DNA of 64,000 nucleotides from a virus: IMG/VR virus record IMGVR_UViG_3300025669_000020, positions 41,614 through 105,613 of that record; one strand, 5' to 3'. The translations under genes and the position numbers were made by a program. This document shows, piece after piece, positions 15,146-43,349 of this stretch; the first letter of the stretch is position 1, and every line of letters begins with the position of its first letter. A model generated the notes under the pieces. It did no database searches and had not been told where the DNA came from. It saw only the letters and a list, made by a program, of their open reading frames with translations.

Positions 15146-15799
15146 ATGCCTACCACTCAGCAGATTCTTGCTACGCTCCCCTCGGACACTACTCGTGTCC
15201 AGGTGCAGAACACTATGGGCAAGACCAAGTACAAGGCCCCTTCCGAGGTGCTGCCTTCTGATACGATCCAGTTCAACAGTGCTGGTGACCCCATTGTGAT
15301 GACTAGCCTCCCTGGTCGCCGCCCGCAGGCTGCCCCGCAGGCTATCAATACTGCCACCGCAGCGGTAGTGCAGCACAAGGAAGACAGCATGAAGAAGGAC
15401 CCCCTTCTTCGGTCTGTCACGGACGACCCACACAGTCTAGAAGTGCTGGACGGCATCATCACGGGCATCTCCGAGGAAGCTGCCTCCTTGCACTTCGAGC
15501 GTCAGGAAGCAGACCGTCGCGGGAATGAAACCAGCAAGATTTCCTTGCGGCGTGTCAATGCCCTGAAGGCAGCAGCCGACGTGTACCTGAAGCGTCGTGA
15601 ACAGCTGTCCTCCGGGGTGGTGGATCTGGATGGGCCCGCTTTCGAGAAGGTCTTCCTGTTCATCATCGAGACCATCCGTAACAGCATGACTGAGTCAGGA
15701 GTGCCCTACGAGCAGGTGGATGCTCTGTTCTCCAAGGTTGCCAAGCAGTTCGATGCAGGGTGGCAGGCGGAGGCCCGAGTCCGCATGGCTCAGAAGTAG
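15146..15799 (+). CDS. Possible terminase small subunit
   Basis: A 217-aa protein with a taggagg ribosome site, directly upstream of the large terminase. The N-terminal 75 residues are low-complexity. Residues 90-215 are helical (SLRRVNALKAAADVYLKRR, then a helix pair around VFLFIIETIRNSM). Position and helix-rich build suit a DNA-recognition small subunit, but no clear helix-turn-helix is seen. Confidence 0.4.
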   Translation: MPTTQQILATLPSDTTRVQVQNTMGKTKYKAPSEVLPSDTIQFNSAGDPIVMTSLPGRRPQAAPQAINTATAAVVQHKEDSMKKDPLLRSVTDDPHSLEVLDGIITGISEEAASLHFERQEADRRGNETSKISLRRVNALKAAADVYLKRREQLSSGVVDLDGPAFEKVFLFIIETIRNSMTESGVPYEQVDALFSKVAKQFDAGWQAEARVRMAQK

Positions 15800-15807
15800 G
15801 CTACACC

Positions 15808-18159
15808 ATGGCACTTTCTGATCTGGTTCTAGGCGCAGGGCGCATGAAAACCGGGGAGTCCCGTACTCCCACGGACATCATCACGTTTATCGAGGCCCCT
15901 TGGGGCCTCGATATGAAGCTGTACCCTGTGCAGAGGGTCATCCTCAAAGCCCACTACGGCATGGGTTTGGATGACAACCCTTTGGGGTTCCCTCTTGACG
16001 ATCCGATCCCCGAGGATCACCCGCACTACGACCCCAAGTGGTTTGACATCAATCCCCGTGCGGCACAGAACACCATCGAGATCACGAACCCGTTGACGAT
16101 CCCTGACGGGGCAGACATCACCCTGGTAGACCACACAGGTGCTGCCATCTTTTTCAGGGAGGGTGTCCACTGGTCCCGCCAGGGGTCTGTTGCTGATGTG
16201 ACAGCATCCATCATACAGACGCTGAGGGACAATGTCCCGGACACATTCACGGTAGATGATACGGATTACGGGCGTATCAAGGTGCTAAGCAAGGGGTATA
16301 GCATCGAAGGGAATGCTGCGGATATGCAGCTGACGCCTTGTGCTGGTTGGAGGGTGGGGCTCCCCGCCTTGGAGACGGATCAGGAGGGGTATGAGCAGCA
16401 CCACCACCGCTTCTTTGCGGGTGAGGGCGGCTTCTACAAGTACCGCATCCCCATCTCTGACTGGCGTCGTGAGAACGCTCGTGTGTACACGGAGGCAGGG
16501 TATCTCAAGTACCTGCATAGTGAGAATCGCTGCAACGTAGCAGAGATCATCCCGGGGCAGGAACGTCGTGAGATGGTTCTTTCCATTGGGCGTCGTTCTG
16601 GCAAGACGCTCCTGACTTCCTGCATCCTGGCCTATGAGACATACAAGCTGTTGCTCAAGGGCAACCCGCAGAAGCATTACGGCTCCAGCCAGTCCAACGT
16701 CATCCAGCTCATCAGTGTTGCTACTGACAAGGATCAGGCAGGGCTTCTCTACCAGGAGGCCGCCGGACATTTTGGAAAATGCGATTTCTTTGCAGCCTAT
16801 ATGGCGAACGCCACCCAGAGCTTCGCTACGTTCCAGACCCCTTTCGACATTGAACGCTACGGCTCCTACGCGGAGAACCAGAAGGCCCGCTACTCGGTCA
16901 AGGTCACCTTCAAGAGCTGTGTGGCCAAGGGGCTTCGCGGTGGTGCCAACATCCTGGTTGCCTTGGATGAGGTTGCTCACTTCACAGACAAGGGTCAGTC
17001 CTCCGCAGAATCTGTCTACCAGGCAGTAGAGCCCTCTACCCGAACCTTCTCTCCGAAGGACCCCAACAACGCCACCCGTTCCGTGGGCCAGAACGAGGGT
17101 CGGATCATCATGATCTCGTCCCCTCTGGGCAAGCAGGGGCTCTTCTACAAGAGCTACCAGATCGGCTACACCAGTGGTCGTGCTGCCAAGAACATGCTCT
17201 GTATCCAGGCACCAACATGGGAGGTCAACCCCACGGTGCCCGCAGGGACGTTTGAGTCTTCCTACCTCAAGGATGCCCGTGTGTTCGACACGGAGTTCGG
17301 GGCGAAGTTCACGGACAGGTCTTCAGGCTGGATCGAGGACAAGAGAGATCTCCTTGACTGTGTGACCCCATCGCTGAGACCCAAGCAGAAGGCCCGTCCT
17401 CGTGAGCCTCACTTCCTGGGACTCGATGTGGGTCTTGTAGGGGATGGTTCCGCTGTGGCTATCGGGCATGTGGATGATAATAAGAATGTCGTCCTGGATT
17501 TCATTGAACAGATCAAGGCTGGGGAAGGGCGGTTCGAGCACTTGGAGCGGTTGGAGTTCACGGATGTTGCGGACTGGGTTTATGACCTCTCCCGGAGGTT
17601 CTACATCTCGGAGGGGATCTTTGACCAGTGGGCAGGTATTCCCATGGAGCAGGCACTGGCTGCCCGCGGTCTCAAGCAGCTGAAGTCTGTGTTTTTCACG
17701 AAGCCCAAGAGCAGTGAGATATTCCAGAACTTCAAGAACATGATGTACGACAAACGGCTTTCACTGTTCAACTACCCTCTCAAAGAGGGGGAGGAACATT
17801 GTGACTACCTCAAGGAACTGCTGACCCTCCAGGCTGAATACCAGTCCAAGTACATCACGGTGGTGGCTGCTCCCAACACTCAAGGCATGCACGATGATAT
17901 GTCCGATGCCCTTGTTCGTATGGTGTGGGTTGGTTCCCAGCACATGGGCAAGATGTTGGCGGTTGGCAATTACATCGGTGGGCAAATGGGTGGGAAGGGT
18001 CCGAGGCGTAGTTCACTCACGGATCGGATGGCCACCCGGCAGAAAGCTCTTTTGGGTGGGAGCCATCCAGATCGTCAGGTGCGTCGTAGCAAGAAAAACA
18101 TCATGGGCATGCCCGTGGGTGCGACACGGGGTGTGAACCCCAGAACACGTCGGGGATAA
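15808..18159 (+). CDS. Terminase large subunit (ATPase and nuclease), with inserted domain
   Basis: A 783-aa packaging motor. N-terminal YPVQ (39-42) is the adenine-binding motif. Walker A GRRSGKT lies at 261-267, Walker B ILVALDE at 382-388, and coupling SSPLGK around 437-442. The RNase H-like nuclease has LGLDVGLVGDGSA (540 region) and a late HDDMSDALVR. ATG 15808 is chosen over upstream codons because it follows the previous stop. About 110 residues (82-190) between the Q-like motif and Walker A form an extra beta-rich domain resembling phage tail-protein modules. The C-terminal 60 residues are basic. Confidence 0.9.
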   Translation: MALSDLVLGAGRMKTGESRTPTDIITFIEAPWGLDMKLYPVQRVILKAHYGMGLDDNPLGFPLDDPIPEDHPHYDPKWFDINPRAAQNTIEITNPLTIPDGADITLVDHTGAAIFFREGVHWSRQGSVADVTASIIQTLRDNVPDTFTVDDTDYGRIKVLSKGYSIEGNAADMQLTPCAGWRVGLPALETDQEGYEQHHHRFFAGEGGFYKYRIPISDWRRENARVYTEAGYLKYLHSENRCNVAEIIPGQERREMVLSIGRRSGKTLLTSCILAYETYKLLLKGNPQKHYGSSQSNVIQLISVATDKDQAGLLYQEAAGHFGKCDFFAAYMANATQSFATFQTPFDIERYGSYAENQKARYSVKVTFKSCVAKGLRGGANILVALDEVAHFTDKGQSSAESVYQAVEPSTRTFSPKDPNNATRSVGQNEGRIIMISSPLGKQGLFYKSYQIGYTSGRAAKNMLCIQAPTWEVNPTVPAGTFESSYLKDARVFDTEFGAKFTDRSSGWIEDKRDLLDCVTPSLRPKQKARPREPHFLGLDVGLVGDGSAVAIGHVDDNKNVVLDFIEQIKAGEGRFEHLERLEFTDVADWVYDLSRRFYISEGIFDQWAGIPMEQALAARGLKQLKSVFFTKPKSSEIFQNFKNMMYDKRLSLFNYPLKEGEEHCDYLKELLTLQAEYQSKYITVVAAPNTQGMHDDMSDALVRMVWVGSQHMGKMLAVGNYIGGQMGGKGPRRSSLTDRMATRQKALLGGSHPDRQVRRSKKNIMGMPVGATRGVNPRTRRG

Positions 18160-18448: not shown

Positions 18449-18832
18449 ATGGCACGACTTCGCAAAGGCTCCTTGGCATCTCCCGCTGATAGGGAGATTC
18501 TGGGCCATGTGGCAGCAGCGGAGAGGGCCCTTCGCAAGGCTTTGGATGCTTGTGTCCTAGCTAAGAGGCAATCTCGGTCCCCAGGCAGCAATCTCCGTAT
18601 GGCCCGCGTGATCAGAACACAGCGGGATCTACATCGGGTGATGGCGGCTCTGTCAAATGTGCATCGCATCGTACCCCTTCATGACATGGGCGAGCAGGAT
18701 CCGGGTGAGCTGGATCGTGATCTCATGTCCCCAGAAGAGCGTGCAGCCTTTGATGCTGTGGAAGACCAGCGAGAGGACTTGTTGGCAGCAGTAGCAGAGA
18801 AGTTGACGGCAGCCTGGGAGAGTGCTGAATGA
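18449..18832 (+). CDS. Helical hypothetical protein upstream of portal
   Basis: A 127-aa protein with a gagagg ribosome site. Two charged helical stretches (about 10-60 and 95-125), the second acidic. Its stop overlaps the portal start (ATGA at 18829), so it may be an assembly partner of the portal; this is inferred from gene order only. Confidence 0.55.
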   Translation: MARLRKGSLASPADREILGHVAAAERALRKALDACVLAKRQSRSPGSNLRMARVIRTQRDLHRVMAALSNVHRIVPLHDMGEQDPGELDRDLMSPEERAAFDAVEDQREDLLAAVAEKLTAAWESAE

Positions 18833-20601
18833 CCAAGAACACACTTGAGAAACCTCCGTTCCCGGAGAAGGCCCCCACTTCACAGAAGCGATTGGCCTCT
18901 ACCTCCATGTCAGAACCCCAGGAAGGTCGTGTAGTGGCCAAGGTGCGCCCGCGCCCCAAGGTCAAGACAGGAAAGCCCAAGCGGCTGGACAAGGTCGCTG
19001 CAATGCGGGTGGCCTCCTGTGGTGGCGGCGGTCTTTCAACCTCTGGCTCGGAAAGTGCCTCCTTCGGCAACTTCTACAGCCCAGAGCTGTCCACGGACTT
19101 CTTGGAGCTGGCACAGTCCAAGACTGAGCAGTGGGCCTACTACCGCTTCTTCTACAACGCCGATCCCTTTGTGGGACAAGCCATCGATCTCCATACGGAG
19201 CTGCCCCTCTCCCGTGTACGCTTGGACATCCCCGAGGCCAAGAGCCGTGAATTGGCGATGAAGTCCACCCGGTTCTGTAAGCACTGGGCGAAGGACATTC
19301 AGCTCTTGCGGAAGCTGTGGGGTGTGCTCCATGAGTATCACCTCATTGGGGTCGTCAACATCTACATCGAGGACAACAACCCGGAGATGCCGGAAGAGGT
19401 CCGAATCGAAAGGGTGCGGGAACTCCAGGAGGACGGCACCCTGGTAGAAGAGGAGCAGGAGCTGGAGGACGCTGACGAAAGGTCCGTGGCATGGCTCAAG
19501 AAGAACTACAAGGGTTGGACAGGGTTCCGTGTCATCCCCCCAGAGCAGGTGCATGTTGAGGGGTTCCCCTCCACAGATCTGAAGCTGGTGGAGATGATCC
19601 CCGATGCCAAGACCCGCAAGCTCGTCATGGCAGCAGACAGCGGGGACGCTCGTTCCGCATCCATCGTCAACACGATGGCTCCTGAGATCGTAGAAGCCGC
19701 ACGCACAGGTCAGAATGTTCCCCTGAACACCGACCCAGATGCAGGCAGCTTCGTCCATGTCCTCGAAAACAAGAAGTGCCCCTACCAGGATGGTGGGCAG
19801 TCCATCTTGGAGCGGTGTATCCGCACCCTGGTGTTCTGGGACAAGCTCCGCCAGGCCAACACCTCCATCGCTTCCCGGCACATGACCCCTATTCGGGTTG
19901 TGTACGCAGAGGACATGGACATGGCCGACGTGGAGAACCTGCGTGACCAGGTGGACATGGCCCTGCAGGATCCCGATTTCTCCATCATCGCCAACTTCCA
20001 GATCACCTGGGACGAGATGGGGTCGGATCAGCGTCTGCTAGACCTGTCCAGTGAATACGAGTTCGTGCGGCAACAGCTGTTCGCGGGTTTGGGAGTCACG
20101 GAAGGTCTGCTCACAGGTGAGTCCAGCTACTCCGGTGACCGCATCCATCTGGATGTGATCAACACTCGGTACATGCTGCTCCGTGAGGTCATTCAGGAGT
20201 TCGTGGAAGAGCAGCTCCTGAAGCCGATGTGCAGGCGCATGGGCTTTATCGAGGAGGATGAGGACGGCCGTGATGTCGTCATCTACCCGAAGTTCAGCTT
20301 CACACGGTTGGCTCTGCGGGACAACGCGGACACTTTCGATGCCATGCTCAACCTCTACCAGAAGGGGAGCCTGGACATTGATGCCATCCTGGAACTGCTG
20401 AATATCGATCCGGTGGCCACGAAGGAGAAGCTGGACAGGGACAAGTTCACCCTGAACGATGCTGCCTTCAGCGAGGTGCTTCGAGGCATCTACGGTGAGG
20501 CAGGACGTGCATTGGCGGCAGATTCCGACGTGTTGGAGATCATTGCCAAGAACCTGGGGCTGAAATATGAGAAGCCCAAGGAAGAAGGCGGAAGGTACTA
20601 G
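18829..20601 (+). CDS. Portal protein
   Basis: A 590-aa protein in the usual place after terminase. Portal-like features include the FFYNADPFVGQAIDLHTELPL start of the core (about 103-125), a long clip region, and the helical stem/crown with EYEFVRQQLFAGLGVTEGLLTG (about 410-431), the typical portal stretch. It forms the dodecameric ring for DNA entry. The N-terminal 80 residues are basic and low-complexity and include KVAAMRVAS, a weak match to the RVA tag. Residues about 503-545 are repeated in the next gene. Confidence 0.85.
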   Translation: MTKNTLEKPPFPEKAPTSQKRLASTSMSEPQEGRVVAKVRPRPKVKTGKPKRLDKVAAMRVASCGGGGLSTSGSESASFGNFYSPELSTDFLELAQSKTEQWAYYRFFYNADPFVGQAIDLHTELPLSRVRLDIPEAKSRELAMKSTRFCKHWAKDIQLLRKLWGVLHEYHLIGVVNIYIEDNNPEMPEEVRIERVRELQEDGTLVEEEQELEDADERSVAWLKKNYKGWTGFRVIPPEQVHVEGFPSTDLKLVEMIPDAKTRKLVMAADSGDARSASIVNTMAPEIVEAARTGQNVPLNTDPDAGSFVHVLENKKCPYQDGGQSILERCIRTLVFWDKLRQANTSIASRHMTPIRVVYAEDMDMADVENLRDQVDMALQDPDFSIIANFQITWDEMGSDQRLLDLSSEYEFVRQQLFAGLGVTEGLLTGESSYSGDRIHLDVINTRYMLLREVIQEFVEEQLLKPMCRRMGFIEEDEDGRDVVIYPKFSFTRLALRDNADTFDAMLNLYQKGSLDIDAILELLNIDPVATKEKLDRDKFTLNDAAFSEVLRGIYGEAGRALAADSDVLEIIAKNLGLKYEKPKEEGGRY

Positions 20602-24339: not shown

Positions 24340-26983
24340 ATGCATCCCAACCACTACAGAGTCGCCCAGATGCACCTGGAAGCTACCAGCCACAAGAAGT
24401 CCATCGTCCTCATGACGTTCCTGGCAGACCTTGCCCGGAGCCTCGGGGTCGGTCGGCATGTCTACGTCGTGGGTGGGGCAGTGCGGAATTTCGTGATCGA
24501 TGAGCCCATCAAGGACATCGATGTGGTCATCGACTCCCTGGCTCTCGGGGGAGGCAGGGACTCCGAGTGGTTCGCCAAGAAGGTCGTCAAGGCCATCCCC
24601 GTTCCCGTCAACATGGAGACCAACCAGTACGGTGTGGCCCTCCTCCATGTGAAGGGGGACTGGATTCTGGATGGGGACAACCTCAAGGGTGAGGACATCG
24701 AGATCGCCAACGCCCGCAAAGAGTCCTACGGCGGGGCCGAAGGGAAGGGCTACCGAGCCCCACATGGTAGAGCCCGCGACCATCGAGGAAGATGTGGTTC
24801 GAAGGGAATTCACCTTCAATTGTGTTGCGGGGGACACCCTTATCCCCACTGCGCAGGGCATTCTCCGAATCGATCAAATTGCTTCCCGTGAGGTTGGGGA
24901 TCAACAGGACATTCAAATCATGGTGGCAGGGCAGGAGGGTCCTGCTGAAGCTGTGGGGTGGCAGTACAGTGGGTTTGCTCCTACCTTGAGGGTAACAACG
25001 GGGTGGGGTCACACCCTCTCCTGTACGCATCACCATCCATTTCTGGTCCTTCGGGGGCATGGCCATGAGTGGATACAGGCGGATCAGCTTGATGAGGGGG
25101 ATCTGCTTTGTGTGCCTGTGCAGCAAATGATCCGTAGTACCTCATTGATCCTGGGGTTACCTGATCCTCCGAAACCCCGGACAGGTAAACTCAAGGAGGG
25201 GGTGGTAAAACCTGATGTGATGACACCTGAGCTGGCATTCGTGATCGGGTGTGTGGTGGCCGAAGGATCAAACACCCCTACTCGGGTCTCTTTCAGCAAT
25301 TCAGACCCCGCTTTCATTTCCCGGTATATCGAGTGCTTCAACGCTGTGTTCGGGTTCGTGCCCTCACGGAACAAGGTGGTTGAGAAGGGTTCTGTCCGTA
25401 CCCTGCGAGGTGTGGATTTTGTCGCCACTGCTGATGGTTACGACATCCTCGCTAACAGCAAGGCTGTGGTAGGATGGCTGCAAGACCTCGGCCTTTATTG
25501 CGGGGGATCCAAGGGGGGGAAATCTGCATCCCACCACAAGGTTGTGCCGTGGTCTATCCTCCAAGCCGACGAACAGAGCCAACGAGCGTTCCTTGCAGCT
25601 TATCTGGAGGGGGATGGGTGTCTCCACCACACGGGTCGCATCACATACTGTTCGGCATCTCATCAGGTGCGACAGCAGTTGCAGGTGCTTCTGGGCTCCC
25701 ACGGCATCTTGTCCAAGGTTAAGGACAGGTTCGTGTACATCAATGCTGTGGATTCCTCGCGGCTATGGGAGAAGATTCATCCGTGGATGGTCACCAAGAA
25801 ATTCGACTACACAGGCCGCGTGTTCAAGAGCCGCAACCGTTATGGCATTCCAGTGGACTACATTGCAGGGTTCCTCTCGGGCCGTAGACAGGCATCAGCG
25901 GGTAAGGCAGGGGTCGCCTACACAACAGATTCCGGGGATGCACAACCCCTTCGTGGGATGCACGACCCTGTCCGGTTAGTTCGCCGTCTTCTCCATGACG
26001 CATATGCTCGCGGGGATTTCAACGATTTCCTGGATGGTCTTAGGGTCATTAGTCCCAAGGAACACCTCAATCTCCAACGGTTGTTTGATCTCAGCTACCA
26101 ATATGTAGAGGTCACCTCTGTAGAAGATGCGGGCAAACAGGATGTATTCGACATCTCGATGGAAGAGGGGATGGAACCTGCATTTGTGGCGAATGGGGTG
26201 GTAGTACACAACACCCTCATGTGGCGGCTGCACGACCTGGCCCGAGGGCCGGACAAGGCAGAGATCATTGACCTCACCGGGTGCGGTCTGCGGGATTTGA
26301 AGAACCGCGAGCTGCGGTGCCCCTCGGACCCCGACAAGACCTTCTCGGATGACCCGACACGGCTGCTCCGTGTGGTCAAGTTCACCACGAAGTACGGGAT
26401 CAAGATTCCTGCTGACGTGAAGGCTTCCATCAAGCGGAATGCCCCCAAGCTGCGGAAGGCACCTCACAGTGCCCTGTCCAACCTGCTGATCAACACCGTG
26501 CTGGTGGAGCCATACGCCAAAAAGGCTCTCCATCAGATGAAGGACTTGGGTCTGCTGGACGTGCTGGCAGACATGGTGCGAGAGGTGAAGCCTTTCAGGG
26601 AGGCACTGCAGAGCTGGGTGTCCAACCAGCGGGTGCTCCTGATGTTCGACATCATGGACGTGGGGCTTCCCATGAACACCCCCATCGGGTGGCTGGACAA
26701 GGACCAGCAGAAGCGTCTGCGGGAGATCGCCCTTGGGATGGAGCCTGGTGAGGCCACGAAGTTCCTGGCTGTTTTGAAGCAGACTGGAAAGCTCTGGGGG
26801 GACAAGACCTTCTTCCACACCCTGGCTCAAGAGATGGGTGTAGAGCGGACTGGGATGGCAGTGTTCGGCAAGGCTCTTCAGGAAGTCGCCCGTGACATCA
26901 TTCTGTTTGACCCGACTCTGGCGTGGAAGCCCAAGGATATGCGGCAGTGGGCCCGTGAGCGGATGCGGGAAAAGCGGTTCTAG
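24340..26983 (+). CDS. CCA/poly(A)-polymerase-type nucleotidyltransferase, intein-split and frameshifted
   Basis: The head domain reads from ATG 24340 (VYVVGGAVRNFVIDEPIKDIDVVID has the GG and DxD motifs) to about 24753, then continues one base ahead (+1) as EPHMVEPATIEEDVVRREFTFN. An intein (24821-26212) interrupts the conserved RRxFTxN motif. The C-extein resumes TLMWRLHDL, then IDLTGCGLRDLKNRELR and FSDDPTRLLRVVKF, as in tRNA nucleotidyltransferases. Residues 6-17 carry an RVA-type tag (YRVAQMHLEATS). The HD partner follows at 27077. Product: tRNA CCA repair or another nucleotidyl transfer. Confidence 0.75.
24821..26212 (+). mobile_element. Intein with LAGLIDADG homing endonuclease
   Basis: 464 codons from Cys (TGT 24821) to Asn (AAC 26210-26212). 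Block A is CVAGDTLIPTAQGILRIDQI; block B includes the THHHPF histidine stretch. The endonuclease has two LAGLIDADG-like helices (LAFVIGCVVAEG and FLAAYLEGDG). The end is DVFDISMEEG...FVANGVVVHN, followed by Thr as the +1 extein residue. It inserts in the active-site motif of the nucleotidyltransferase, a usual choice for inteins. All splicing residues look intact. Confidence 0.9.
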
Positions 26984-29834: not shown

Positions 29835-30386
29835 ATGGCTTCCATTACAGGCTCCTTGAGCAATGACGTAGAGCTGATGTTCCCAGGGGACAGGTTCCCC
29901 GTTTCGGCAGGCCCCACCATGATCGCCAATGGTTGGCGTGGAGGCATCTGGGTCATGTATGTCACCTCCGCCCTGGGTGATTTCGTGGTGGAGACCAGCG
30001 ATGGCACAATGACCTGTGGGTTCCTCCTGTTCCAGAGTGAGCAGTACCCCGCGACCCACATCCTGGAAGGCTCCCCCGGCAACTGGCTGGCTGGCCAGCC
30101 ACGGAGCTGTCAGGCAACCAGTGTGGTCACCCTGATCAGTGGTGGCACCCGTGCCTATTTCCGCAGATACGAGACCATCGCTCTCGCTGCTGGCACCAGG
30201 TCAGGTGGGCCAATCACCTATGCGCTGCAGGACACGTTGAAGGTGTCCGAGAACGGGTTGCTCTGCAATGACTCTGATGCCGCCTTGGCAGCGGCGGGTA
30301 TTGCCACTCCTGTCGTGGTCGGCATTGTGAGTGCAACACCCTCCACAGCCAATGAGGTCCGCCTAGGGGCGGACGTTAAGTACTGA
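29835..30386 (+). CDS. Capsid decoration-like virion protein
   Basis: A 183-aa protein that starts after the previous stop. Its C-terminal half (PITYALQDTLKVSENGLLC...VVVGIVSATP) aligns with the protein at 41799 (PITYTTGLALAASRNGFLC...IIGILKMP), which precedes the major capsid gene. The two look like paralogous decoration or head-associated proteins. It sits inside the enzyme island, between two tagged proteins. Confidence 0.6.
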   Translation: MASITGSLSNDVELMFPGDRFPVSAGPTMIANGWRGGIWVMYVTSALGDFVVETSDGTMTCGFLLFQSEQYPATHILEGSPGNWLAGQPRSCQATSVVTLISGGTRAYFRRYETIALAAGTRSGGPITYALQDTLKVSENGLLCNDSDAALAAAGIATPVVVGIVSATPSTANEVRLGADVKY

Positions 30387-32395
30387 TGCCCTCTGCTCCC
30401 ACCCGCGTTGCAGGACGGTTCCTGGAGGCCACCAGGCCCGTGTGCAGGACCAAGGAGGGGTGGGACATCACGTTCAAGGTACTTGTTGATGACCCCCATG
30501 ATCAGATGGGGGTGAAGAAGGGGCACAAGAACCAGCGGGTGGTGGCTTTCATAGAGGGGCAGGAAGTGGGCTACCTCAAGTGGTCCTACATCCCCGAGCA
30601 GGTGTGGGAGCGCCGCTACCCTACGGTGTGGCACTACAGGCGTGATTTTGTAGGGTCCTGGTACGACGCAGAAGGCCAGGACTTGAATGATCTGGAGACC
30701 CTCTGGACACTACTGTTCCAGCATCCCCGCTACTACGGCGAGCCCCGTGAGAAGCCTGACGTGCGGGGCATGAAGAGGGACATCAAGCGGTATCTCAAAC
30801 AGCACCCACAGCTCTCTCCAGCATATGTCAAGTCACGGGAGTTCTGGGTAGATCGGCCCCTGGTCACATATGTGCATGTGGAACCAGCTTGGAGACGACA
30901 CAAGGTAGGGCTTGCCCTTTACACATACGCAGCACGGTGGTTGGCGAAGAAGGGTTTTCCTCTCTATGGGGACACTCTCCAGACAGCAGATGCCAAGGGG
31001 GTTTGGAAGAAGATGCGGAAGCTCAAGCGTATTCCCGTGAAGAACACGGAGTTCGAGCATGGCGGCAAACCTCGTGATCGGATTGATTATCGTCGCGTTG
31101 CCTCCCGGTTCATCTCCAAGCACGCGTGCATCATCGCAGTTGGTGACTGGGAGGGGAGCCGTTGTCTACTGAAGGTGCGGGATCGGAACTACCGTCCTGA
31201 CCTGGACGTGATCCACAAGGTCAAGGCCGGGGTGGAGCTGCTCTATGTCCACGACAAGAAGACGGGCTGGGTAGAGGGGCTGAATGAACACGGGATCGGG
31301 ATCGTGAACACCTCCCTCCTGGTGATCCGGGATGAGAACGAGGTTGACCTGACCACCTCGGAGGGGAAGAAGCTCAAGGACGGCACTCGTATCCGTGAGG
31401 CTCTGACCAAGAAGACCCTGGATGATGCGGTGGACTCCATCTGCAACTACGAGGGTGGGCTCATGGGCCACACCTTCCTCAGTGATGGGGAGACCACCAT
31501 CGTTGTGGAGCACACCATCAAGCACGATTGCAAGACCACGGTGCTCACGGGGGCAGATGTTGTTGTCCGAACGAACCATGGTGTCTCCCATGAGGACGCC
31601 GGGTACACAGACGGGAAGGACGCGGAGTCCTCTCACAAGCGGTCTGATGATGCAGAAGCTGCGCTCTCTGGGGTCAAGAAGATCGAGGATTTGGCTCCTA
31701 CCTTGATGGAGGCTCGGGGTCGGAAGAAGGACCCCAACAACATGGTGCGGAACACCGCCAACATGCGTACCACGTCCCAGATGCTGCTCGACCTGGACAA
31801 CCTGACATTGTACCTCTACCTGATCCCAGGGAAGGTGCAGTGGAAGGGGTACGTGAACAAGATGCCCAAGGGTCGGAAGCCGAAGCTCAAGCTTCAGGTG
31901 CTCCGGTACAAGGACGGGGACAGCCTTGATCTCGAACCAGTCCTGAAACAGGCCCACGTGGAGCCCATGGTGCAGATGGAAGACCATGGCTCTGATGAGG
32001 TGATATTCTACCTGAGGGACAGGAACACCGATAAGGTGTTGGCCGACCTCATCCTCACCGCTATGGATCCCCCCGGCTACTGGTTCGTGGGTCATTCCGG
32101 AGCCCTTGTGCGGGGACAGGGGTATGGCACCGAGCTGTACATGGCTGCCATCAAGTACGCCACGGAACAGGGACACGGGGTGGTGTCCGATGAGGAAGCC
32201 ATTGCCTCAGCCAAGGCAGCACGCAGGTATGTGCGGCGACGCGGGGTGCATTTTCAGGACGGCTCCGTGTACAAGACACGCAGATCCTTCCTGACCTTCT
32301 GCCTGGGGTATCCAGAGGAGGAGGATGCTCACGACATCAGGGACGCGGTGGTGATGACCTCTCGCAAGGGTGCTGCCTACCCCTCGGAGAGATGA
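30386..32395 (+). CDS. 669-aa fusion: GNAT, Ntn-hydrolase-like, GNAT
   Basis: ATG overlaps the previous stop. Residues 6-17 (TRVAGRFLEATR) are an N-terminal tag. A GNAT acetyltransferase domain spans about 20-215 (VTYVHVEPAWRRHKVGLALYTYA). A second tag (RRVASRF, 236-242) is followed at Cys248 by a domain like C45/acyl-CoA:6-APA acyltransferase Ntn hydrolases (CIIAV, VRDRNYRPDLD, GLNEHGIGIVNTS), where the nucleophile Cys becomes N-terminal after self-cleavage. A second GNAT-like domain follows (about 530-620, GALVRGQGYGTELYMAA). The tag placement suggests processing between domains. Confidence 0.7.
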   Translation: MPSAPTRVAGRFLEATRPVCRTKEGWDITFKVLVDDPHDQMGVKKGHKNQRVVAFIEGQEVGYLKWSYIPEQVWERRYPTVWHYRRDFVGSWYDAEGQDLNDLETLWTLLFQHPRYYGEPREKPDVRGMKRDIKRYLKQHPQLSPAYVKSREFWVDRPLVTYVHVEPAWRRHKVGLALYTYAARWLAKKGFPLYGDTLQTADAKGVWKKMRKLKRIPVKNTEFEHGGKPRDRIDYRRVASRFISKHACIIAVGDWEGSRCLLKVRDRNYRPDLDVIHKVKAGVELLYVHDKKTGWVEGLNEHGIGIVNTSLLVIRDENEVDLTTSEGKKLKDGTRIREALTKKTLDDAVDSICNYEGGLMGHTFLSDGETTIVVEHTIKHDCKTTVLTGADVVVRTNHGVSHEDAGYTDGKDAESSHKRSDDAEAALSGVKKIEDLAPTLMEARGRKKDPNNMVRNTANMRTTSQMLLDLDNLTLYLYLIPGKVQWKGYVNKMPKGRKPKLKLQVLRYKDGDSLDLEPVLKQAHVEPMVQMEDHGSDEVIFYLRDRNTDKVLADLILTAMDPPGYWFVGHSGALVRGQGYGTELYMAAIKYATEQGHGVVSDEEAIASAKAARRYVRRRGVHFQDGSVYKTRRSFLTFCLGYPEEEDAHDIRDAVVMTSRKGAAYPSER

Positions 32396-32914: not shown

Positions 32915-35900
32915 ATGCCCACTGTCGATAAAGTAGCTGCCCGTTGGCTGGAAGCGCGCCAGGATCCCCTGGACGAGAAGTACATCCAGAAGCTCCGCAA
33001 GGAGTTCCTGATGCTCCTTCGGAACGCGGACAGGGCCAAGACTTTCGACACCCCCACAGCGGAGAAGTACCGCAAGGCTGTGGTTCGGTGGCGGGAGATG
33101 TTCGAGCTTTATGGGGGGCAGATTCGGGAGGACCTGAAGGGTAGAGAGCGTGCAGCCAAGAGCGGTTATGGGAAGAACACCAAGGCCAATGAACAGTGGG
33201 CACATTGGTATCTGGAACACATGAAGCCTTTCTGGGAAATGCACTATGAGCTGGGTAATGTTCCCGCGGTGCCAGACCTGCGCGCTGGTACTTCAGGAGG
33301 GCCTTTCGAAGACCCCGAGGTGGTGGAGGCCCGGCTTGTAGATTTTTATGAGACGCGCTATCCAGAGAGGGATGCCAAGAGGGAGGTTGAGCGGTATCTC
33401 TGGAGTTCCCCGCTCTGGACACGGAAGCAGGCAGAGGCGGATTCTCTGGAGCGTTGGGCGGAAATCACTCGCAAGTGGGCTGCACGGGCTCGGAGCAAGG
33501 CTCGTGCAACGTGGAAGTATCTCACTGATCTGGGCAACTGGGCTGCAGAGTCCGGTGGGGGTGGGGAGGCCATTGCATTGACCACGACCCAGGATGAGAG
33601 GGTGAGCCTGGAAGGTTTCTCCCTGCTTTTCCGGGGGTTCGATGATGCTGGCTCGAACCAGGAGTATTTGGAGGCACTGAAGGCAGCCCTGGCCAAGTAC
33701 AAGCAGAAGGCACGTAAGCACCTGCCTCTTCTTCTGAAGAAACAACTCCCATTCGTGGTGAACTGGTCCTGGGCCAAAGACCATGGAAGCGCCGCCGCCA
33801 CCTACAACGGCGACCACATCGAGATCACTCCTTGGGGGTTGACTTCCAACACTGACAACATGGTGCGGACATTGGCTCATGAGATGGGCCACCACCTCTA
33901 CGACATCCTGGGTCGGGAGAAGCAGCACTTCTGGGAAAGTGCCCTCCGTGGGGACTACAAGAAGCTGGATTTGCGGCATGCAGTCAAGGTCATGAAGTCT
34001 GTGGGGGCTAGCACCACCATCAGTGACAAGCTGGCTCAGAAGGACCCCATCCTCTATCTGCAGTTGGGCACCCTCCTGAACCATCATGGCTACAAGGGTT
34101 TGGACTTGTTCGGGCTGAAATCCATTGAGGAGTATTTGGCAGATCCGGAGAACAGTCCCATTGTTATAGTGCCTGCCTCTCCAATCTCAGCGTATGCGGG
34201 AACGAGTGCCTCAGAGGCTTTCTGTGAGGCTGTCGGGCACCTGGTGGCCTACGGCAAGAACCGGCTGCCTGACAAGGTGTTGGGTTGGATGAAGATCATG
34301 CTTCCCCATGTGAAGTTCGGGGCAGAGCGGCTTGGCCCCAACACCCCGCTGATGGAACACGGCAAGGTCAAGGTCAAGTACCGGGTGAAGAGCAGTGGCA
34401 AGGGCGTCGCTGTGACGGTCTATTATGGCCGTGGGAAAATTGGTGGGATGAATGCTTTTGTCACCAAATACCCCGAACGGGATTACTGCGGAGATGACGT
34501 TTGGAAGCTCCTGAAGAAGTACCCACAGGTTGAGGACACCAGCCGTGGTAGGTGGACACCAAATGGCGGGGAAGAGCGCACCAACACGAGGGGTCTCCAA
34601 GTCTACAAGGCATTCCTCACCGATGAAAGCAAGCAGGGGTTGGGCATTGGCAGGGCGATGTACCTGGCGATGATGGCGGAGTGGTTCGATAAGGTTGGGC
34701 CCTTCCTGTTCATGCCTATGGTCTGTGGGTTGGGTACATCGGGGACATCTGCCGCAGCTTTCCGTGTGTGGAAGTCTCTGGCACGGGATTTCCCCTCCAG
34801 CGGCAATGTGATTGCAGTGCTTCGGCGTCCTCGGTTGCCTTCCCCCTCCAAGGTAGCACACAGGTTCATGGGAGATTCTTCTCTTCACCCTGTGAGGGGT
34901 ATCTCCACGCATGACGGGGACGGGCGTCCTCTGCGGCAGCCCTCTGGTTTGTTGCGTATGATGCCTGACTATGGAGAGGGCGGAGCCAATCTCCCTCGTG
35001 GGAATCCTGGTGAGGTCGAAGAGGTGTGCGAGGAACTGCAGGCTATGGGGATGCGGGTGGCAGCATATGATCTGATTACAGACCTCATGCCTAAAGAGAT
35101 GGACACATTCAGAATCGGACCTTTGCACATCAGTATTTCTCCTGGGTATGACAAGTTCCAACGCCTGTTCACCCGGCAGATGGCTGCTGCCCTCCAGCAG
35201 CACAAGAAGCTCCTCCCAGAAATGCAAATCCGAGCAGCAAATGTGGTGCTTGTACACTCCCGAGGTTGGGGTGAGGATCTGGCGGGCGACTATGACGACG
35301 GGACGATCCGGATCCTATTCAAGAACAGCCCTGCCGCTGTGGAGACCGCCTTGCACGAGATCGGGCATCAGCTGTGGGATCACAACAGTGGTTTGCGGAG
35401 CCAGTGGCGTATTTTTGACTCGGTTGCATGGGATACCAAGGGGTATCGGATCAATGCTGTAGCTTCGGAGAGCATGGAGGAGCACTTCTGCGAGGCATAC
35501 GCCCTTGTGGTGGGTGGTTCTCTCCGGGGTTGGCGGAAGGAGGCTATTCTGATGGCTATCGAAGGAAAGACCCACCCCAGGATGCAGGCATCCAGAGTGG
35601 CCACACGGTTGGCGGATCGGTTCCTCAGTGCAGCAGCCAAGTACCAGAAGAAGAAGGAAGTCCCCAAGGCTGATGGCAAGGGGACCATGACCGTCTACGA
35701 GTACAGCGACGGGCAGGTTCAGCACCGGAACCGGGAGAAGGCCGAGCGCGTAGAGAAACTACGGGGGAACCTCGACAAGCTCCGTGGCCAGGTGAAGAAA
35801 GACCTCAAGTCCAAGGACCCAAGCACAAGGCTCAGTGCTTTGGCTGTGGGGCTCATGAACGACACCTACGAGCGTGTAGGCAATGCAGGCTCCGCCAAGG

Positions 35901-37318
35901 AAGGACACTTCGGTGTCACCGTGTGGCAGGCCCAGCATGTAACCCTGGGCAAGGGGAAGGCCACCTTCAGCTATGTAGGCAAGAGCGGGGTCAAGCAGAA
36001 GAAGGTCACCTCCGACAAGGCTTTGATCTCTGTGCTGCGTGAAGCCATGAAGGGGAAGTCCGGTACGGATAATGTGTTCTCACTGGACGATGTTTCCGTG
36101 GGTGCTAGCGGGGTGAACGAGTACCTCAAGCAGTTCAACATCACCGCGAAGGACATCCGAGGGCTGCATGCCAACAGGGAGATGCAGACCCGGCTCAAGA
36201 GCGTTCGTTCCAAGGGCGGCAAGCTCCCAGCTGACAAGAAAAAGCGGGATGAGAAGCTCAAGGCGGAGTTCAAGAAGGCTCTGGAGGGAGCTGCAGAGGC
36301 TGTGGGCCATGAGCCCACTACCCTGAAGGGTCAGTACCTCGTGCCTGGGTTGGAGGACAGCTACATCAAGGACGGCACTGTGATGGACAAGCTGCACAAG
36401 AAGGCTCGTGTGGCACTTCCCCCAAGCAAGTGGGTGGATGCGGTGTCTACGGAGCTGGACAGGGCTCAGAAGGAACAGGTCTGGACCGTTTACCACATGA
36501 CCTATGCGACTATCGGAGAACACATTGGGAGCTTGGGGCAGCTCCTGTCCAAGTACAAGCTCCTGTGGTTGATGGATGTCGATGGTGACCAGGAGATCGA
36601 TGCCTTCATCGCCTACAAGAAGACTCCTTTTGGCTACAAGATCGCCCTGGGAGGAACAGACGGCACCAGGGCTGCTGTGAGGGCATTTGTGCGGAAGCAC
36701 CAAGAGTTGATGGTGCGTCCAGGGTGGTATGCAGAGGCATCCGGCAAGCCCGATAAGCTGATGTCCAAGATGGGCCTGCGCCCTCTGGAAGATGAGAGTG
36801 CTGTGCGTGGGGTACTGGTAGGCAAGGACATCGAGTGGGGGCAGGATGGTTGGTACACCCGAACCCTGGGTGGTCTTGGGAAGGTTAAGAAGCGGATGTA
36901 CGGACACCCCATAGTGAGGGGTCGTGCGCTCATGGCCTCCGATGTGGAGTGGGAAGACCTCACAGGGAGGACGCTTACGGGTGAGGTGGTAGACACGGAC
37001 TCCAACGTGTGGATCGTGGCAGATGCCACTGGCAGAGAGCATCACCTGGAAGATGGGTGGGACTTTGTGCGGAGGGTGGCAACCAAGACCCCCGCAGAGC
37101 GTGAGGATGCAGAGGTGGAGCGGCTCAGTCGCAAGGAGCCCAAAGTCAAACCTCCCCGCAAGGATCTCCGCAGGCAGCGTATGGAAGTGGATCAGGAAGA
37201 CGATCCCGACATGAAACAGGACAAAAAGAATCAGTCCCACAATTACAAGGACATAGGGGCAAGCGTGCTTTCTGTGCTGGAACGACAGTACAAATTCAGC
37301 GCCTGGACGGTATGGTAG
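32915..37318 (+). CDS. 1467-aa multi-enzyme protein with type IB topoisomerase
   Basis: Residues 5-16 are a tag (DKVAARWLEARQ). Zincin domain 1 has HEMGH (322-326) and a later SASEAFCEAVGH. A GNAT-like domain spans about 500-640. A second tag (SKVAHRF, 645-651) precedes zincin domain 2 with HEIGH (814-818) and SMEEHFCEAYA. A third tag (SRVATRLADRFL, 893-904) precedes a full type IB topoisomerase (905-1160): R987, K1023, R1082, H1132 and Y1141, spaced like the vaccinia enzyme. A second GNAT-like domain (about 1188-1330) and an acidic/basic tail follow. It could be cleaved to four or five enzymes. Confidence 0.8.
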   Translation: MPTVDKVAARWLEARQDPLDEKYIQKLRKEFLMLLRNADRAKTFDTPTAEKYRKAVVRWREMFELYGGQIREDLKGRERAAKSGYGKNTKANEQWAHWYLEHMKPFWEMHYELGNVPAVPDLRAGTSGGPFEDPEVVEARLVDFYETRYPERDAKREVERYLWSSPLWTRKQAEADSLERWAEITRKWAARARSKARATWKYLTDLGNWAAESGGGGEAIALTTTQDERVSLEGFSLLFRGFDDAGSNQEYLEALKAALAKYKQKARKHLPLLLKKQLPFVVNWSWAKDHGSAAATYNGDHIEITPWGLTSNTDNMVRTLAHEMGHHLYDILGREKQHFWESALRGDYKKLDLRHAVKVMKSVGASTTISDKLAQKDPILYLQLGTLLNHHGYKGLDLFGLKSIEEYLADPENSPIVIVPASPISAYAGTSASEAFCEAVGHLVAYGKNRLPDKVLGWMKIMLPHVKFGAERLGPNTPLMEHGKVKVKYRVKSSGKGVAVTVYYGRGKIGGMNAFVTKYPERDYCGDDVWKLLKKYPQVEDTSRGRWTPNGGEERTNTRGLQVYKAFLTDESKQGLGIGRAMYLAMMAEWFDKVGPFLFMPMVCGLGTSGTSAAAFRVWKSLARDFPSSGNVIAVLRRPRLPSPSKVAHRFMGDSSLHPVRGISTHDGDGRPLRQPSGLLRMMPDYGEGGANLPRGNPGEVEEVCEELQAMGMRVAAYDLITDLMPKEMDTFRIGPLHISISPGYDKFQRLFTRQMAAALQQHKKLLPEMQIRAANVVLVHSRGWGEDLAGDYDDGTIRILFKNSPAAVETALHEIGHQLWDHNSGLRSQWRIFDSVAWDTKGYRINAVASESMEEHFCEAYALVVGGSLRGWRKEAILMAIEGKTHPRMQASRVATRLADRFLSAAAKYQKKKEVPKADGKGTMTVYEYSDGQVQHRNREKAERVEKLRGNLDKLRGQVKKDLKSKDPSTRLSALAVGLMNDTYERVGNAGSAKEGHFGVTVWQAQHVTLGKGKATFSYVGKSGVKQKKVTSDKALISVLREAMKGKSGTDNVFSLDDVSVGASGVNEYLKQFNITAKDIRGLHANREMQTRLKSVRSKGGKLPADKKKRDEKLKAEFKKALEGAAEAVGHEPTTLKGQYLVPGLEDSYIKDGTVMDKLHKKARVALPPSKWVDAVSTELDRAQKEQVWTVYHMTYATIGEHIGSLGQLLSKYKLLWLMDVDGDQEIDAFIAYKKTPFGYKIALGGTDGTRAAVRAFVRKHQELMVRPGWYAEASGKPDKLMSKMGLRPLEDESAVRGVLVGKDIEWGQDGWYTRTLGGLGKVKKRMYGHPIVRGRALMASDVEWEDLTGRTLTGEVVDTDSNVWIVADATGREHHLEDGWDFVRRVATKTPAEREDAEVERLSRKEPKVKPPRKDLRRQRMEVDQEDDPDMKQDKKNQSHNYKDIGASVLSVLERQYKFSAWTVW

Positions 37319-38206: not shown

Positions 38207-38788
38207 TTGACCCATTCCCGTACCGCCGTGAACTACCAGGAGCGTGCAGCTGAATTTGCTGTGGGTGAAGAGGTGGAGACCGTCAACGGTACGCATGGGC
38301 GCATTGTGGCCCTCTGGCCTGCCATTGGCATGGCTGATGTGGAGTTCCCCAACGGGAGCCGTCGTATCCCTGTAGAAGAGATGTACCGGGCTCCTGGTAG
38401 CTGGGTAGCCTCTCCCCAGGGCGAGACTGTTCCAGGGGGACTCCCCACCGTTTCTGTTCCTGGTGGCTCTGTCGCTCCTATCCCCCCTCCCGTCAAGAAG
38501 ACCGCTTCCCCACAGTCCCAAGAGCGCGTTGCTCGGGCTTTTGTGAAGAGGGCTCTCTACTGGGCAGGGAAGGACAGGCAGTACAGGGCTTCTGGTGATG
38601 AGGTCGATTCAGGACTCTACTGCTGCCCCAAGTGCAAGGCACGGGGGGAAGAAATCCCAATGAGACGTGCGATCTACAAGCGGCGCAATGGTTGTAGTGA
38701 TCGGCTCTTGGGATGTCCCTCCTGCATGTTCTTGATCAAGCGGTCGGATGTCCTGAATGACCCCACATACCAGGTAGAGGTTGTCTGA
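38207..38788 (+). CDS. KOW plus zinc-ribbon hypothetical protein
   Basis: A 193-aa protein; TTG 38207 is the only plausible start after the previous stop. Residues 18-60 form a small SH3-like barrel (VGEEVETVNGTHGRIVALWP). A Pro-rich linker leads to SQERVARAFVKRAL (about 105), a tag-like helix. The C-terminal part has C-P-K-C and C-P-S-C knuckles (about 145-170), a zinc ribbon. Function unknown; it lies between scaffold and protease genes. Confidence 0.6.
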   Translation: MTHSRTAVNYQERAAEFAVGEEVETVNGTHGRIVALWPAIGMADVEFPNGSRRIPVEEMYRAPGSWVASPQGETVPGGLPTVSVPGGSVAPIPPPVKKTASPQSQERVARAFVKRALYWAGKDRQYRASGDEVDSGLYCCPKCKARGEEIPMRRAIYKRRNGCSDRLLGCPSCMFLIKRSDVLNDPTYQVEVV

Positions 38789-40395
38789 TGGCGTTCCTTC
38801 GCACAGCCTCCGCCTTGGTAGTACAGCCATCCATCAGCCCCAAGGGCTGGGGGAGGGTTCGTACAGCTTCCAAGGTAGAGGGAGCACCCTCCAAGAATCT
38901 GTCGGCACAAGCCAGCGAGATTCTCGGCACAGATTTTGACCCGTCCAAGTACCTGCTGACCCATTGCACCATCGTCGCCTCCGTGAATGTCGAGTCTGTC
39001 CCCAACGTGAAGTTGGGTTCTCTCACAGAGGATGGTCACAAGGTCAACCGCAAGTACGTTGACTACCGTGTCAGCTCCGACACGGACAAGTACATCAACA
39101 ACAACCTGGACTGCTTCGGGCGGGACGTGCTGCTGGACAGCTACTCCACGTTCATCGGGGCACAGAACTATCAGGAACATGTTCAGGTCGAAGCCATGTC
39201 CAAGGGCCGCATCATCGATGCCGTAGCCCGTGACATTGGCGACTCCATCTATGTCGATATCCTGGTGGCCACGGATCGGAAGCATACCGAGCTGGTCAAG
39301 GATATCGAAGCAGGCAAACTCGGCACACTCTCCATGGGTTGCAGTGTAGATGAGACCATCTGCACCAAGTGCGGCAACGTCGCCGTGGACGAGACCGAGC
39401 TTTGCCATCATGTCCGCTACGAGAAGGGCAACATCTTCTATGACGACAAGGGGCATCAGCACCGTGTCGCGGAGCTGTGCGGACACCCCTCTATCGAGCC
39501 CCATGGTGGAGTGACCTTCATCGAGGCTTCCTGGGTTGCAGCACCCGCTTTCACTGGCGCGGTCTTGCGGAACATCATCCACCCCGGCGATCTGACAGAC
39601 AAGCAGGCTTCCCGAATCCAGGAAATCCTGAACACCCCTCCCTGTGACTGGACTGACAGCTGTGGTATCGCCAAGGCTGCCTCCGAGACCACGAGTGAGC
39701 GGGTTGTCGGCAAGGTCGCAAATCCTGCTGTTCAACACACCCTGGTCCTTGACCCCCATCGTCAGGCAGGCACCCCCGTGGATGCTTTCAACTTCGATGA
39801 GCCGGGCGGTGACGAAGGCGGCGGTGACGAAGGCGGCGGTGAAGAGGCTGAGAAGCCCAAGGAAGAGAGCCCTCTGCACCAACTAGAGGATGATGTCCTC
39901 CATGAGGTAGTGGACAGGGTCAAGACCCGTGTCCGTGAGGACTTGGAGCGGGACAAGGATAAGGATGCCCCTGTAGTGGCTCCCACCTTTGCTCCTAACG
40001 ATACTCTCATCAAGGAAGCTCGTAAGAAAGCAGCACGCTCTTTGCAGCGTGTCCGTGTTGCGGCAGCCAAGCAAGCCTACAGGCAGGCATATTGGGCAGC
40101 CACAGCTACGTTGACGAAGACTGCTACTTCCGATGCAGACCTTGTGAACAGTGTGGCAGTACTGGACGGCAACTTTGGGATTAACGTCCCTGTGGATGTC
40201 TACCAGGCAGCCCTTTCGGTCGGTTCTGCCGATAACTACCCTACTGTGGGGAAATTCCTGACCGCGTGTAAGAGCACGGTGAGGCGTCCTATCAGTCTCC
40301 AGGATGCCAAGGCGTTCATCCGCCTCGGTAAAATCCTATCCCACGCGGAGGCAGTTTCCTCCGTTTGCCTACCCCCAAAAAGCAGGAGTGTGTGA
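38788..40395 (+). CDS. Prohead (capsid maturation) protease
   Basis: A 535-aa protein. NYQEHVQVEAMSKGRIIDA holds the likely catalytic His131, and GTLSMGCSVD the Ser182, as in prohead proteases of the T4 gp21/HK97 type. A Cys cluster (C192, C195, C206 with His207) follows. The end of the core (FIEASWVAAPAFTGAVLRNI) is typical. Beyond about 330 is an acidic Gly-rich linker, a coiled coil and a basic helix, perhaps a fused core protein. It would cleave scaffold and any targeted internal proteins in the prohead. Start overlaps the previous stop. Confidence 0.75.
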   Translation: MAFLRTASALVVQPSISPKGWGRVRTASKVEGAPSKNLSAQASEILGTDFDPSKYLLTHCTIVASVNVESVPNVKLGSLTEDGHKVNRKYVDYRVSSDTDKYINNNLDCFGRDVLLDSYSTFIGAQNYQEHVQVEAMSKGRIIDAVARDIGDSIYVDILVATDRKHTELVKDIEAGKLGTLSMGCSVDETICTKCGNVAVDETELCHHVRYEKGNIFYDDKGHQHRVAELCGHPSIEPHGGVTFIEASWVAAPAFTGAVLRNIIHPGDLTDKQASRIQEILNTPPCDWTDSCGIAKAASETTSERVVGKVANPAVQHTLVLDPHRQAGTPVDAFNFDEPGGDEGGGDEGGGEEAEKPKEESPLHQLEDDVLHEVVDRVKTRVREDLERDKDKDAPVVAPTFAPNDTLIKEARKKAARSLQRVRVAAAKQAYRQAYWAATATLTKTATSDADLVNSVAVLDGNFGINVPVDVYQAALSVGSADNYPTVGKFLTACKSTVRRPISLQDAKAFIRLGKILSHAEAVSSVCLPPKSRSV

Positions 40396-42473: not shown

Positions 42474-43349
42474 ATGAGCAACGTATCCAACGCTGCAAAG
42501 CAGCAGATCATCTCCGAGTTCATCAAGACCCCCCAGGGTCGCGCTAAGCTCGCAGCCTCGATGACCCAGCCTCTGCGCCTCCGCCGGGACTACACCGCAG
42601 TCGGTCGTAAGACCTTCCTCGTGGAACAGCTCCCTGACGGCGCACTGCCCATCTACGACAAGGACCCCGATGTGACGGCATACGTCGTTGGTGAAGAAGG
42701 CGAGAACATCCTCGCAGTCACCAAGCCTCGCCGTGTCATCTTCCCCCTCTTCGAGATCGCATCCAACCCCGAGATCCCGCTCACGCAGATCAAGGAACGT
42801 CGGTTCGACCTCATCGAGCGCGCCCAGGACTTGGCCCGTGCCCAGATCCAGGCAGCAGAAGACGAGCGTGTCTTCGCAGTGCTCGACAGCATCGCCACCA
42901 ACGGCTTCGACTCCGTGGCTGGCGGCACCAACCCTGACATCCCCGTGGTCGCTCCGATCTCTGGTGCTGTCCTGGCTGATGCCTTCGCACTGATCGAGCG
43001 TCATGACCTTCATGTCGCTCGCGTGTTCATGAACGCTCGGGACTACGCGGACCTCCGCAAGTTCGGTCGCGACATCCTGGACATCGAATCCCAGCGCGAT
43101 TTGTTGAAGACCGGCCTGATGGCAACCCTCTGGGGAGCACAGATCATCGTCAGCCGCCTCGTGCCTGTCGGAACGGTCTATGTGTGTTGCGAACCGGAAA
43201 TGTTCGGCCGCATCCCCGTTCGCATTGAGCTGACAGTTCTCAGCGCAGACGACCCGAAGGCTCGCACCATCGGCTTCTCCTGCTTCGAGAACCTCGGTAT
43301 CGGCGCGTTCAACCCCCGTGGTCTGACCCGTCTGACGATCACCCGTTAG
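42474..43349 (+). CDS. Major capsid protein (HK97 fold)
   Basis: A 291-aa protein. The build fits small HK97-type capsid proteins: helical N-terminus, E-loop-like strands (VGRKTFLVEQLPDGALPIYDK), long spine helix (RFDLIERAQDLARAQIQAAEDERVF split by turns) and P-domain ending. Codon use is highly biased toward C-ending codons, fitting high expression. A strong terminator follows. It is the best capsid candidate; no direct motif proves it. Confidence 0.75.
   Translation: MSNVSNAAKQQIISEFIKTPQGRAKLAASMTQPLRLRRDYTAVGRKTFLVEQLPDGALPIYDKDPDVTAYVVGEEGENILAVTKPRRVIFPLFEIASNPEIPLTQIKERRFDLIERAQDLARAQIQAAEDERVFAVLDSIATNGFDSVAGGTNPDIPVVAPISGAVLADAFALIERHDLHVARVFMNARDYADLRKFGRDILDIESQRDLLKTGLMATLWGAQIIVSRLVPVGTVYVCCEPEMFGRIPVRIELTVLSADDPKARTIGFSCFENLGIGAFNPRGLTRLTITR

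What the first reader, a model, noticed from the sequence alone, without database searches (positions are those of the whole stretch)
32915..37318. Type IB topoisomerase embedded in a 1467-aa protein with two metallopeptidase and two GNAT domains
R987, K1023, R1082, H1132 and Y1141 have the order and near-exact spacing of the vaccinia topoisomerase pentad (His-Tyr spacing of 9 is identical). Two HExxH zincin sites and GNAT-like regions flank it, with tags at 5-16, 645-651 and 893-904. A topoisomerase inside such a polyprotein is unusual and would fit entry of a large genome into the cell.
Basis: partly seen in the sequence, partly recalled or inferred. Interest (0 to 1): 0.88.

Follow-up and report, generated by a model that had tools for sequence, protein, structure and literature searches.

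The report
Topoisomerase-bearing multi-enzyme huge-phage protein
A very large bacterial virus makes one giant protein that strings together a DNA-untwisting enzyme, protein-cutting domains and other enzymes joined by short repeated tags; at least 50 distinct relatives keep the DNA-untwisting part with its active site intact, usually beside the genes for the virus head, so it is probably carried in the particle and acts when the viral DNA enters a cell.

Summary
ORF 32915-37318 (1467 aa) carries a genuine type IB topoisomerase catalytic module: Pfam PF01028 3e-26; predicted fold matches solved TopIB structures; the pentad R987/K1023/R1082/H1132/Y1141 is invariant in 67 of 67 sequences. Two HExxH sites are real and enriched in the family. 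GNAT1 is weakly supported, GNAT2 unproven.

It is not a one-off. Viral metagenomes plus one MAG hold 50 further non-redundant proteins (321-3125 aa) with this module, fused in varying order to tRNA nucleotidyltransferase, 2H, HAD, RNA-ligase, NUDIX, InPase, GNAT, PAP2 and LPD1 domains, mostly between portal and prohead protease. The same modules are separate genes in other phages. The tag (RVAxR[YFW]L) recurs about 100 times above chance in sequences not used to define it. A contig otherwise 100% identical over 19.8 kb carries an extra 195-aa HAD module exactly at a tag-coding repeat.

This is a TopIB-centred branch of the 'polyvalent proteins' (Iyer 2017), which that paper does not describe. 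Most likely it is packaged in the head and injected, relaxing incoming DNA without ATP. Packaging, cleavage and activity are inferred, not shown.

The parts
32915..37318 (+). whole ORF, 1467 aa multi-domain protein
32930..32965 (+). tag 1, KVAARWLEARQD (aa 6-17)
32915..34354 (+). MP1 module (aa 1-480), zincin-like metallopeptidase; separate tagged gene in LR745208
33878..33892 (+). HExxH 1 (aa 322-326)
34355..34849 (+). GNAT1-like module (aa 481-645), weakly supported
34850..34873 (+). tag 2, KVAHRFMG (aa 646-653)
35055..35062 (+). GGGTGGCA junction (codes for RVA): the point where contig L003 has 585 extra bp, an in-frame HAD module
35150..35593 (+). MP2 module (aa 746-893) with a second HExxH
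35354..35368 (+). HExxH 2 (aa 814-818)
35594..35629 (+). tag 3, RVATRLADRFLS (aa 894-905)
35651..36409 (+). type IB topoisomerase catalytic module (aa 913-1165; Pfam 936-1138)
35873..35875 (+). R987, pentad residue
35981..35983 (+). K1023, pentad residue
36158..36160 (+). R1082, pentad residue
36308..36310 (+). H1132, pentad residue
36335..36337 (+). Y1141, catalytic tyrosine
36950..37315 (+). C-terminal segment (aa 1346-1467), present inside the topoisomerase ORF of 28 of 50 relatives
15760..18159 (+). context: terminase large subunit
18829..20601 (+). context: portal protein
30386..32395 (+). neighbouring tagged multi-enzyme protein: GNAT, C45/AAT acyltransferase; two tags
38788..40395 (+). 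context: prohead (head maturation) protease
42474..43349 (+). context: major capsid protein

Best explanation
This is a polyvalent-type cargo protein of a huge tailed phage whose constant part is a type IB topoisomerase. Inferred course: it is made with the head proteins; the repeated RVAxR[YFW]L tags dock it (and separately encoded tagged proteins) to the prohead core or scaffold; the prohead protease and/or its own zincin domains may cut it into units; it is packaged with the genome and ejected into the cell. There the TopIB module nicks and reseals DNA through a 3'-phosphotyrosine on Y1141 (R987, K1023, R1082, H1132 assisting), without ATP, and removes torsional stress from the incoming genome before phage genes are expressed. 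The peptidase, acetyltransferase and HAD modules act on host proteins or RNA ends at the same time. Shown here: TopIB fold and invariant active site, modular architecture, tags, gene position between portal and protease. Inferred: packaging, tag function, cleavage, injection, activity and target.
For: TopIB by Pfam, PDB profile search, fold and invariant pentad in 67/67. Same-strand portal upstream in 30/50 and prohead protease downstream in 34/50 relatives with only 8-kb flanks; from the protease side 26/39 have the module upstream. Companion modules are those of injected polyvalent proteins: zincin, GNAT, 2H, InPase, LPD1, and a tagged ART-PolyVal protein in LR745208; class definition and packaging argument in PMC5512222. 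Tags: 44 hits against 0.44 expected in 44 ORFs not used to define them, 0 in reversed sequences. Module gain/loss at a tag repeat between otherwise identical contigs. A TopIB without the N-terminal domain still relaxes DNA, and needs no ATP (PMC2666729).
Against: No virion peptide or activity data. About a third of the phages with the same protease lack the module upstream, so it is not essential for entry in this clade. Some family members lie in contigs where the 8-kb flanks show no portal or protease homologue. Cultured relatives by capsid protein (Tunturi_5, Bacillus phage G) show no TopIB match and no tagged cargo.
Confidence: 0.58

Rival explanations
1. The topoisomerase is a late intracellular enzyme: it relieves torsion while the terminase pumps concatemeric DNA through the portal, or in replicating DNA, and is not injected. 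Fusion to other late enzymes reflects co-expression only.
For: The gene lies next to terminase and portal; TopIB acts on any duplex DNA; stand-alone phage TopIBs such as that of PaBG sit near nucleotide-metabolism genes.
Against: The fused partners (zincin, GNAT, 2H, InPase, LPD1, HAD, CCA enzyme) have no evident role in packaging and are typical of injected effectors (PMC5512222); tags are shared with an ART-PolyVal protein.
Confidence: 0.22
2. The module works mainly in nucleic-acid repair at entry, together with CCA-adding, 2H, HAD_SAK and RNA ligase modules, resealing nicks or processing ends made by host defences, rather than relaxing supercoils.
For: RNA-repair-type partners recur (PolyA_pol 10, 2H 7, HAD_SAK 5, RNA ligase 1 of 50).
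Against: In many members the module stands without any of these partners, and a complete TopIB pentad is kept in all.
Confidence: 0.1
3. The module is a catalytically dead DNA-binding domain that anchors the protein to packaged DNA.
For: It sits in head-cluster proteins, and the N-terminal TopIB clamp domain is missing.
Against: All five catalytic residues are invariant in 67/67 sequences down to about 50% identity.
Confidence: 0.05
4. The fusion is an assembly or annotation artefact.
For: Metagenomic contig; window and L003 differ by a 585-bp block.
Against: L003, a separate contig, reproduces the order of the other modules at 100% identity; dozens of independent contigs show comparable fusions; the 585-bp difference is in frame and exactly at a tag repeat.
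Confidence: 0.02

Closest known systems
Polyvalent proteins (Iyer et al. 2017, PMC5512222)
   Same: Large multi-domain proteins of portal-terminase phages with zincin, GNAT, 2H, InPase, LPD1 and ART domains, encoded with head genes and thought to be injected
   Different: TopIB as the constant module (topoisomerase occurs in that paper only in a reference title); regular short RVAxR[YFW]L tags at domain borders; CCA-enzyme, HAD_SAK and RNA-ligase modules
Stand-alone TopIB of jumbo phages (PaBG, Motura, RSL1 and others; Iyer et al. 2021, PMC7824862)
   Same: Phage-encoded type IB topoisomerase
   Different: About 27-33% identity over 9-11% of the query; single-function genes near nucleotide-metabolism or tail genes; not fused, not between portal and protease
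Poxvirus and bacterial TopIB (vaccinia/variola, D. radiodurans, P. aeruginosa)
   Same: Catalytic fold and pentad; His-Tyr spacing of 9
   Different: N-terminal clamp domain replaced by tag and other modules; part of a 1467-aa protein
T4 capsid-targeting sequence / giant-phage propeptides (PMC5694885)
   Same: Short peptide on several head-cluster proteins with a prohead protease nearby
   Different: Tags here are also internal and C-terminal; no cleavage or targeting data; different sequence

Membership tests
Type IB topoisomerase | Family profile above curated cut-off | tested here: met
   PF01028 92.5 bits against 23.7; 50/50 relatives
Type IB topoisomerase | R-K-R-H/N-Y catalytic pentad | tested here: met
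   invariant in 67/67
Type IB topoisomerase | TopIB catalytic fold | tested here: met
   Foldseek: top 22 PDB hits all TopIB
Type IB topoisomerase | N-terminal clamp domain of poxvirus/bacterial enzymes (not required for chemistry) | tested here: not met
   match to 2f4q starts at its residue 70; the segment before it is tag and MP2
Type IB topoisomerase | ATP-independent relaxation | not testable with these tools
   needs assay
Polyvalent proteins | Several effector-type domains in one chain with variable architecture | tested here: met
Polyvalent proteins | Domains specific to the class (LPD, polyvalent InPase, ART-PolyVal) | tested here: met
   met in relatives (LPD1 2/50, InPase 2/50; tagged ART-PolyVal in LR745208); the window protein itself has only zincin- and GNAT-like parts
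Polyvalent proteins | Encoded with portal-terminase head genes | tested here: met
Polyvalent proteins | Packaged and injected | not testable with these tools
   needs virion proteomics
PaBG-type phage topoisomerase I | Stand-alone gene, close homology to that group | tested here: not met
   27-33% identity, fused, different neighbourhood
T4-type capsid-targeting sequence | N-terminal position only | tested here: not met
   tags also internal and C-terminal
T4-type capsid-targeting sequence | Directs protein into prohead and is cleaved by the prohead protease | not testable with these tools
   needs packaging assay and virion mass spectrometry
Proteolytically processed viral polyprotein | Cleavage into mature units | not testable with these tools
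   zincin motifs and a nearby prohead protease make it possible; no cleavage data

The most novel reading that the evidence does not exclude
Huge phages of this clade use a cassette system: a short peptide, RVAxR[YFW]L, is a general cargo tag for the prohead, and genes for injected enzymes are fused, split and swapped by recombination at the tag-coding DNA. A TopIB that needs no ATP is the commonest cargo because very large genomes need torsional relief on entry.
Probability: 0.35. Interest if true: 0.85.

Novelty: new variant of a known kind. Interest (0 to 1): 0.64.

Why it matters
Huge phages must bring up to half a megabase of DNA into a cell, and how they manage DNA topology before making any protein is open. 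A TopIB conserved inside head-cluster multi-enzyme proteins gives a direct, testable candidate. The shared tag suggests a simple rule for what gets packaged, which would let injected effectors be predicted from sequence and might allow foreign proteins to be loaded into phage heads.

Tried and rejected
Megablast of 24 kb against known phages found nothing. NCBIfam gave nothing for the protein. The AlphaFold model of aa 1-900 was only moderately confident over MP1 and failed for GNAT1 and MP2; its Foldseek hits (zinc peptidases) are not significant. A tyrosine recombinase (integrase) was considered and rejected: all TopIB structures outrank XerH and the KDxR TopIB signature is present. Bacillus phage G and Tunturi_5 were examined as cultured relatives that might carry a tagged cargo: no TopIB match and only one tag hit in all control phage pieces, in the phage G portal. 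Literature searches for a TopIB polyprotein or such a tag in huge phages found none in the held library. The host, and the evolutionary origin of the TopIB module (tree), were not pursued.

Full report
What was checked. The ORF at 32915-37318 is real and open. The protein matches Pfam Topoisom_I at 3.2e-26 over aa 936-1138, and solved TopIB sequences by phmmer (D. radiodurans 4.6e-10) and by a profile of seven phage sequences (2f4q 4e-19, variola 7e-16). The AlphaFold model is confident over the module (pLDDT about 82-97 over most of aa 951-1160); the top 22 PDB fold matches are all TopIB and XerH recombinases come only after them. The N-terminal clamp domain of poxvirus and bacterial enzymes is missing: the match to 2f4q begins at its residue 70. 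The P. aeruginosa enzyme without that domain still relaxes DNA, and the enzyme needs no ATP (PMC2666729), so the module can plausibly work alone.

Other domains. Two HExxH sites exist, each with a downstream E-x-F-C-E-A. The first is conserved in homologues, including a separate 454-aa gene of LR745208 that begins with a tag. HExxH is found in 19 of 51 family ORFs against 2.3 expected. The zincin assignment is by motif and weak profiles only (SprT-like 0.0076). GNAT1 is supported by a homologue with Acetyltransf_1 E=0.011. The second GNAT claim (aa 1171-1345) has no profile support, though the segment has a homologue in a separate gene of LR745208.

A family, not a singleton. Searches with the module found 65 loci in IMG/VR and one in a MAG: 51 non-redundant including the window at <97% module identity, on contigs up to 618 kb. 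The ORF carrying the module is 321 to 3125 aa long. In 50 relatives Pfam finds TopIB in all, PolyA_pol (tRNA nucleotidyltransferase) in 10, 2H in 7, HAD_SAK_1 in 5, PAP2 in 4, GNAT in 4, DUF5661 in 4, LPD1 in 2, InPase in 2, and RNA ligase, NUDIX, C45/AAT, ChaC and phosphoribosyltransferase in one each. The same module is fused in one phage and separate in another: CCA-enzyme segments lie inside the topoisomerase ORF in 10 and upstream of it in 10; in the window the CCA enzyme is encoded separately.

Position. In the window the order is terminase, portal, an island of such enzymes, the topoisomerase protein, two small conserved genes, prohead protease, another gene, major capsid protein. With only 8-kb flanks, relatives show the portal upstream in 30 of 50 and the protease downstream in 34 of 50, on the same strand. 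Starting instead from the protease, 26 of 39 loci with at least 9 kb upstream have the module there on the same strand. It is therefore common in, but not essential to, this clade. The capsid protein is 85-90% identical to those on the 105-kb, 223-kb, 436-kb and 485-kb records, so the window is probably a fragment of a huge phage.

Tags. A profile built from 31 tags in the first phages finds, in 44 ORFs not used to build it, 44 hits at a score where shuffled sequences give 0.44 and reversed sequences give 0; 30 of these are not next to the topoisomerase. The consensus is RVAxR[YFW]L. Tags also occur on other ORFs of the same loci, 30 against 1.35 expected, all 30 on the strand of the head genes. 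In LR745208 they occur on an ART-PolyVal protein, a 2H protein and a C39-like peptidase. One hit was seen in 93 ORFs of control phage pieces.

A module gained or lost at a tag. Contig L003 is 100% identical to the window over 10,148 and 9,622 bp on either side of one difference: L003 has 585 extra bp, in frame, coding for a HAD_SAK-like module, exactly at an 8-bp repeat GGGTGGCA that codes for the RVA of a tag. LR745208 has a HAD module directly before its TopIB, so loss in the window variant is the simpler reading. One of the two contigs could be misassembled, but an 8-bp repeat makes that unlikely.

Mechanism. Best reading: a polyvalent-type protein packaged in the head and injected, in which TopIB relaxes incoming DNA at once, without ATP, while peptidase, GNAT and RNA-end enzymes act on host components. 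The class is described by Iyer et al. 2017 (PMC5512222), including likely zincin processing into units; topoisomerase appears there only in a reference title. Stand-alone TopIB in PaBG-type jumbo phages is known (PMC7824862) but is distant and unfused. Capsid-targeting propeptides exist in T4 and SPN3US (PMC5694885), but the tags here also sit internally and at C-termini. Packaging, tag function, cleavage, injection and activity remain inferred.

Verdict. Observation confirmed; interpretation right on the enzyme, partly right on the rest. New variant of a known kind: a TopIB-centred, tag-punctuated branch of the polyvalent proteins.

Noticed in passing
window 24340-26983: tRNA nucleotidyltransferase gene interrupted by an intein with a LAGLIDADG domain; the N-terminal part lies in a different frame (24340-24891) from the rest (24671-26983), so there may also be a frameshift.
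   Followed up: partly
L047 10704-12056 (contig G002): A sequence similar to the window's tRNA-nucleotidyltransferase intein lies between pieces of the terminase gene of a related phage, suggesting the intein moves between different host genes.
   Followed up: no
window 21301-24336: 1011-aa ORF directly after the portal with a segment similar to MP1 (23.5%), DUF5661 and a 2H phosphoesterase: another multi-enzyme protein of the same kind.
   Followed up: partly
window 30386-32395: Protein with two tags, a GNAT domain and a C45/AAT-type autoproteolytic acyltransferase.
   Followed up: no
window 43545-44696: LAGLIDADG homing endonuclease gene just after the major capsid gene.
   Followed up: no
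window 15760-18159: Terminase has a stretch of about 150 aa (around aa 75-230) that the relatives' matches skip, possibly an insertion.
   Followed up: no
L110 3772-7860 (Tunturiibacter phage Tunturi_5 gp321): The nearest cultured relative by capsid protein has a 1362-aa head-cluster protein annotated as NUDIX that by eye shows an HExxH site and ART- and GNAT-like motifs but no tags; not tested with profiles.
   Followed up: partly
L154, L166, L169: Phages with the same prohead protease carry only a distant TopIB-like stretch (27-28% identity) upstream on the opposite strand.
   Followed up: no
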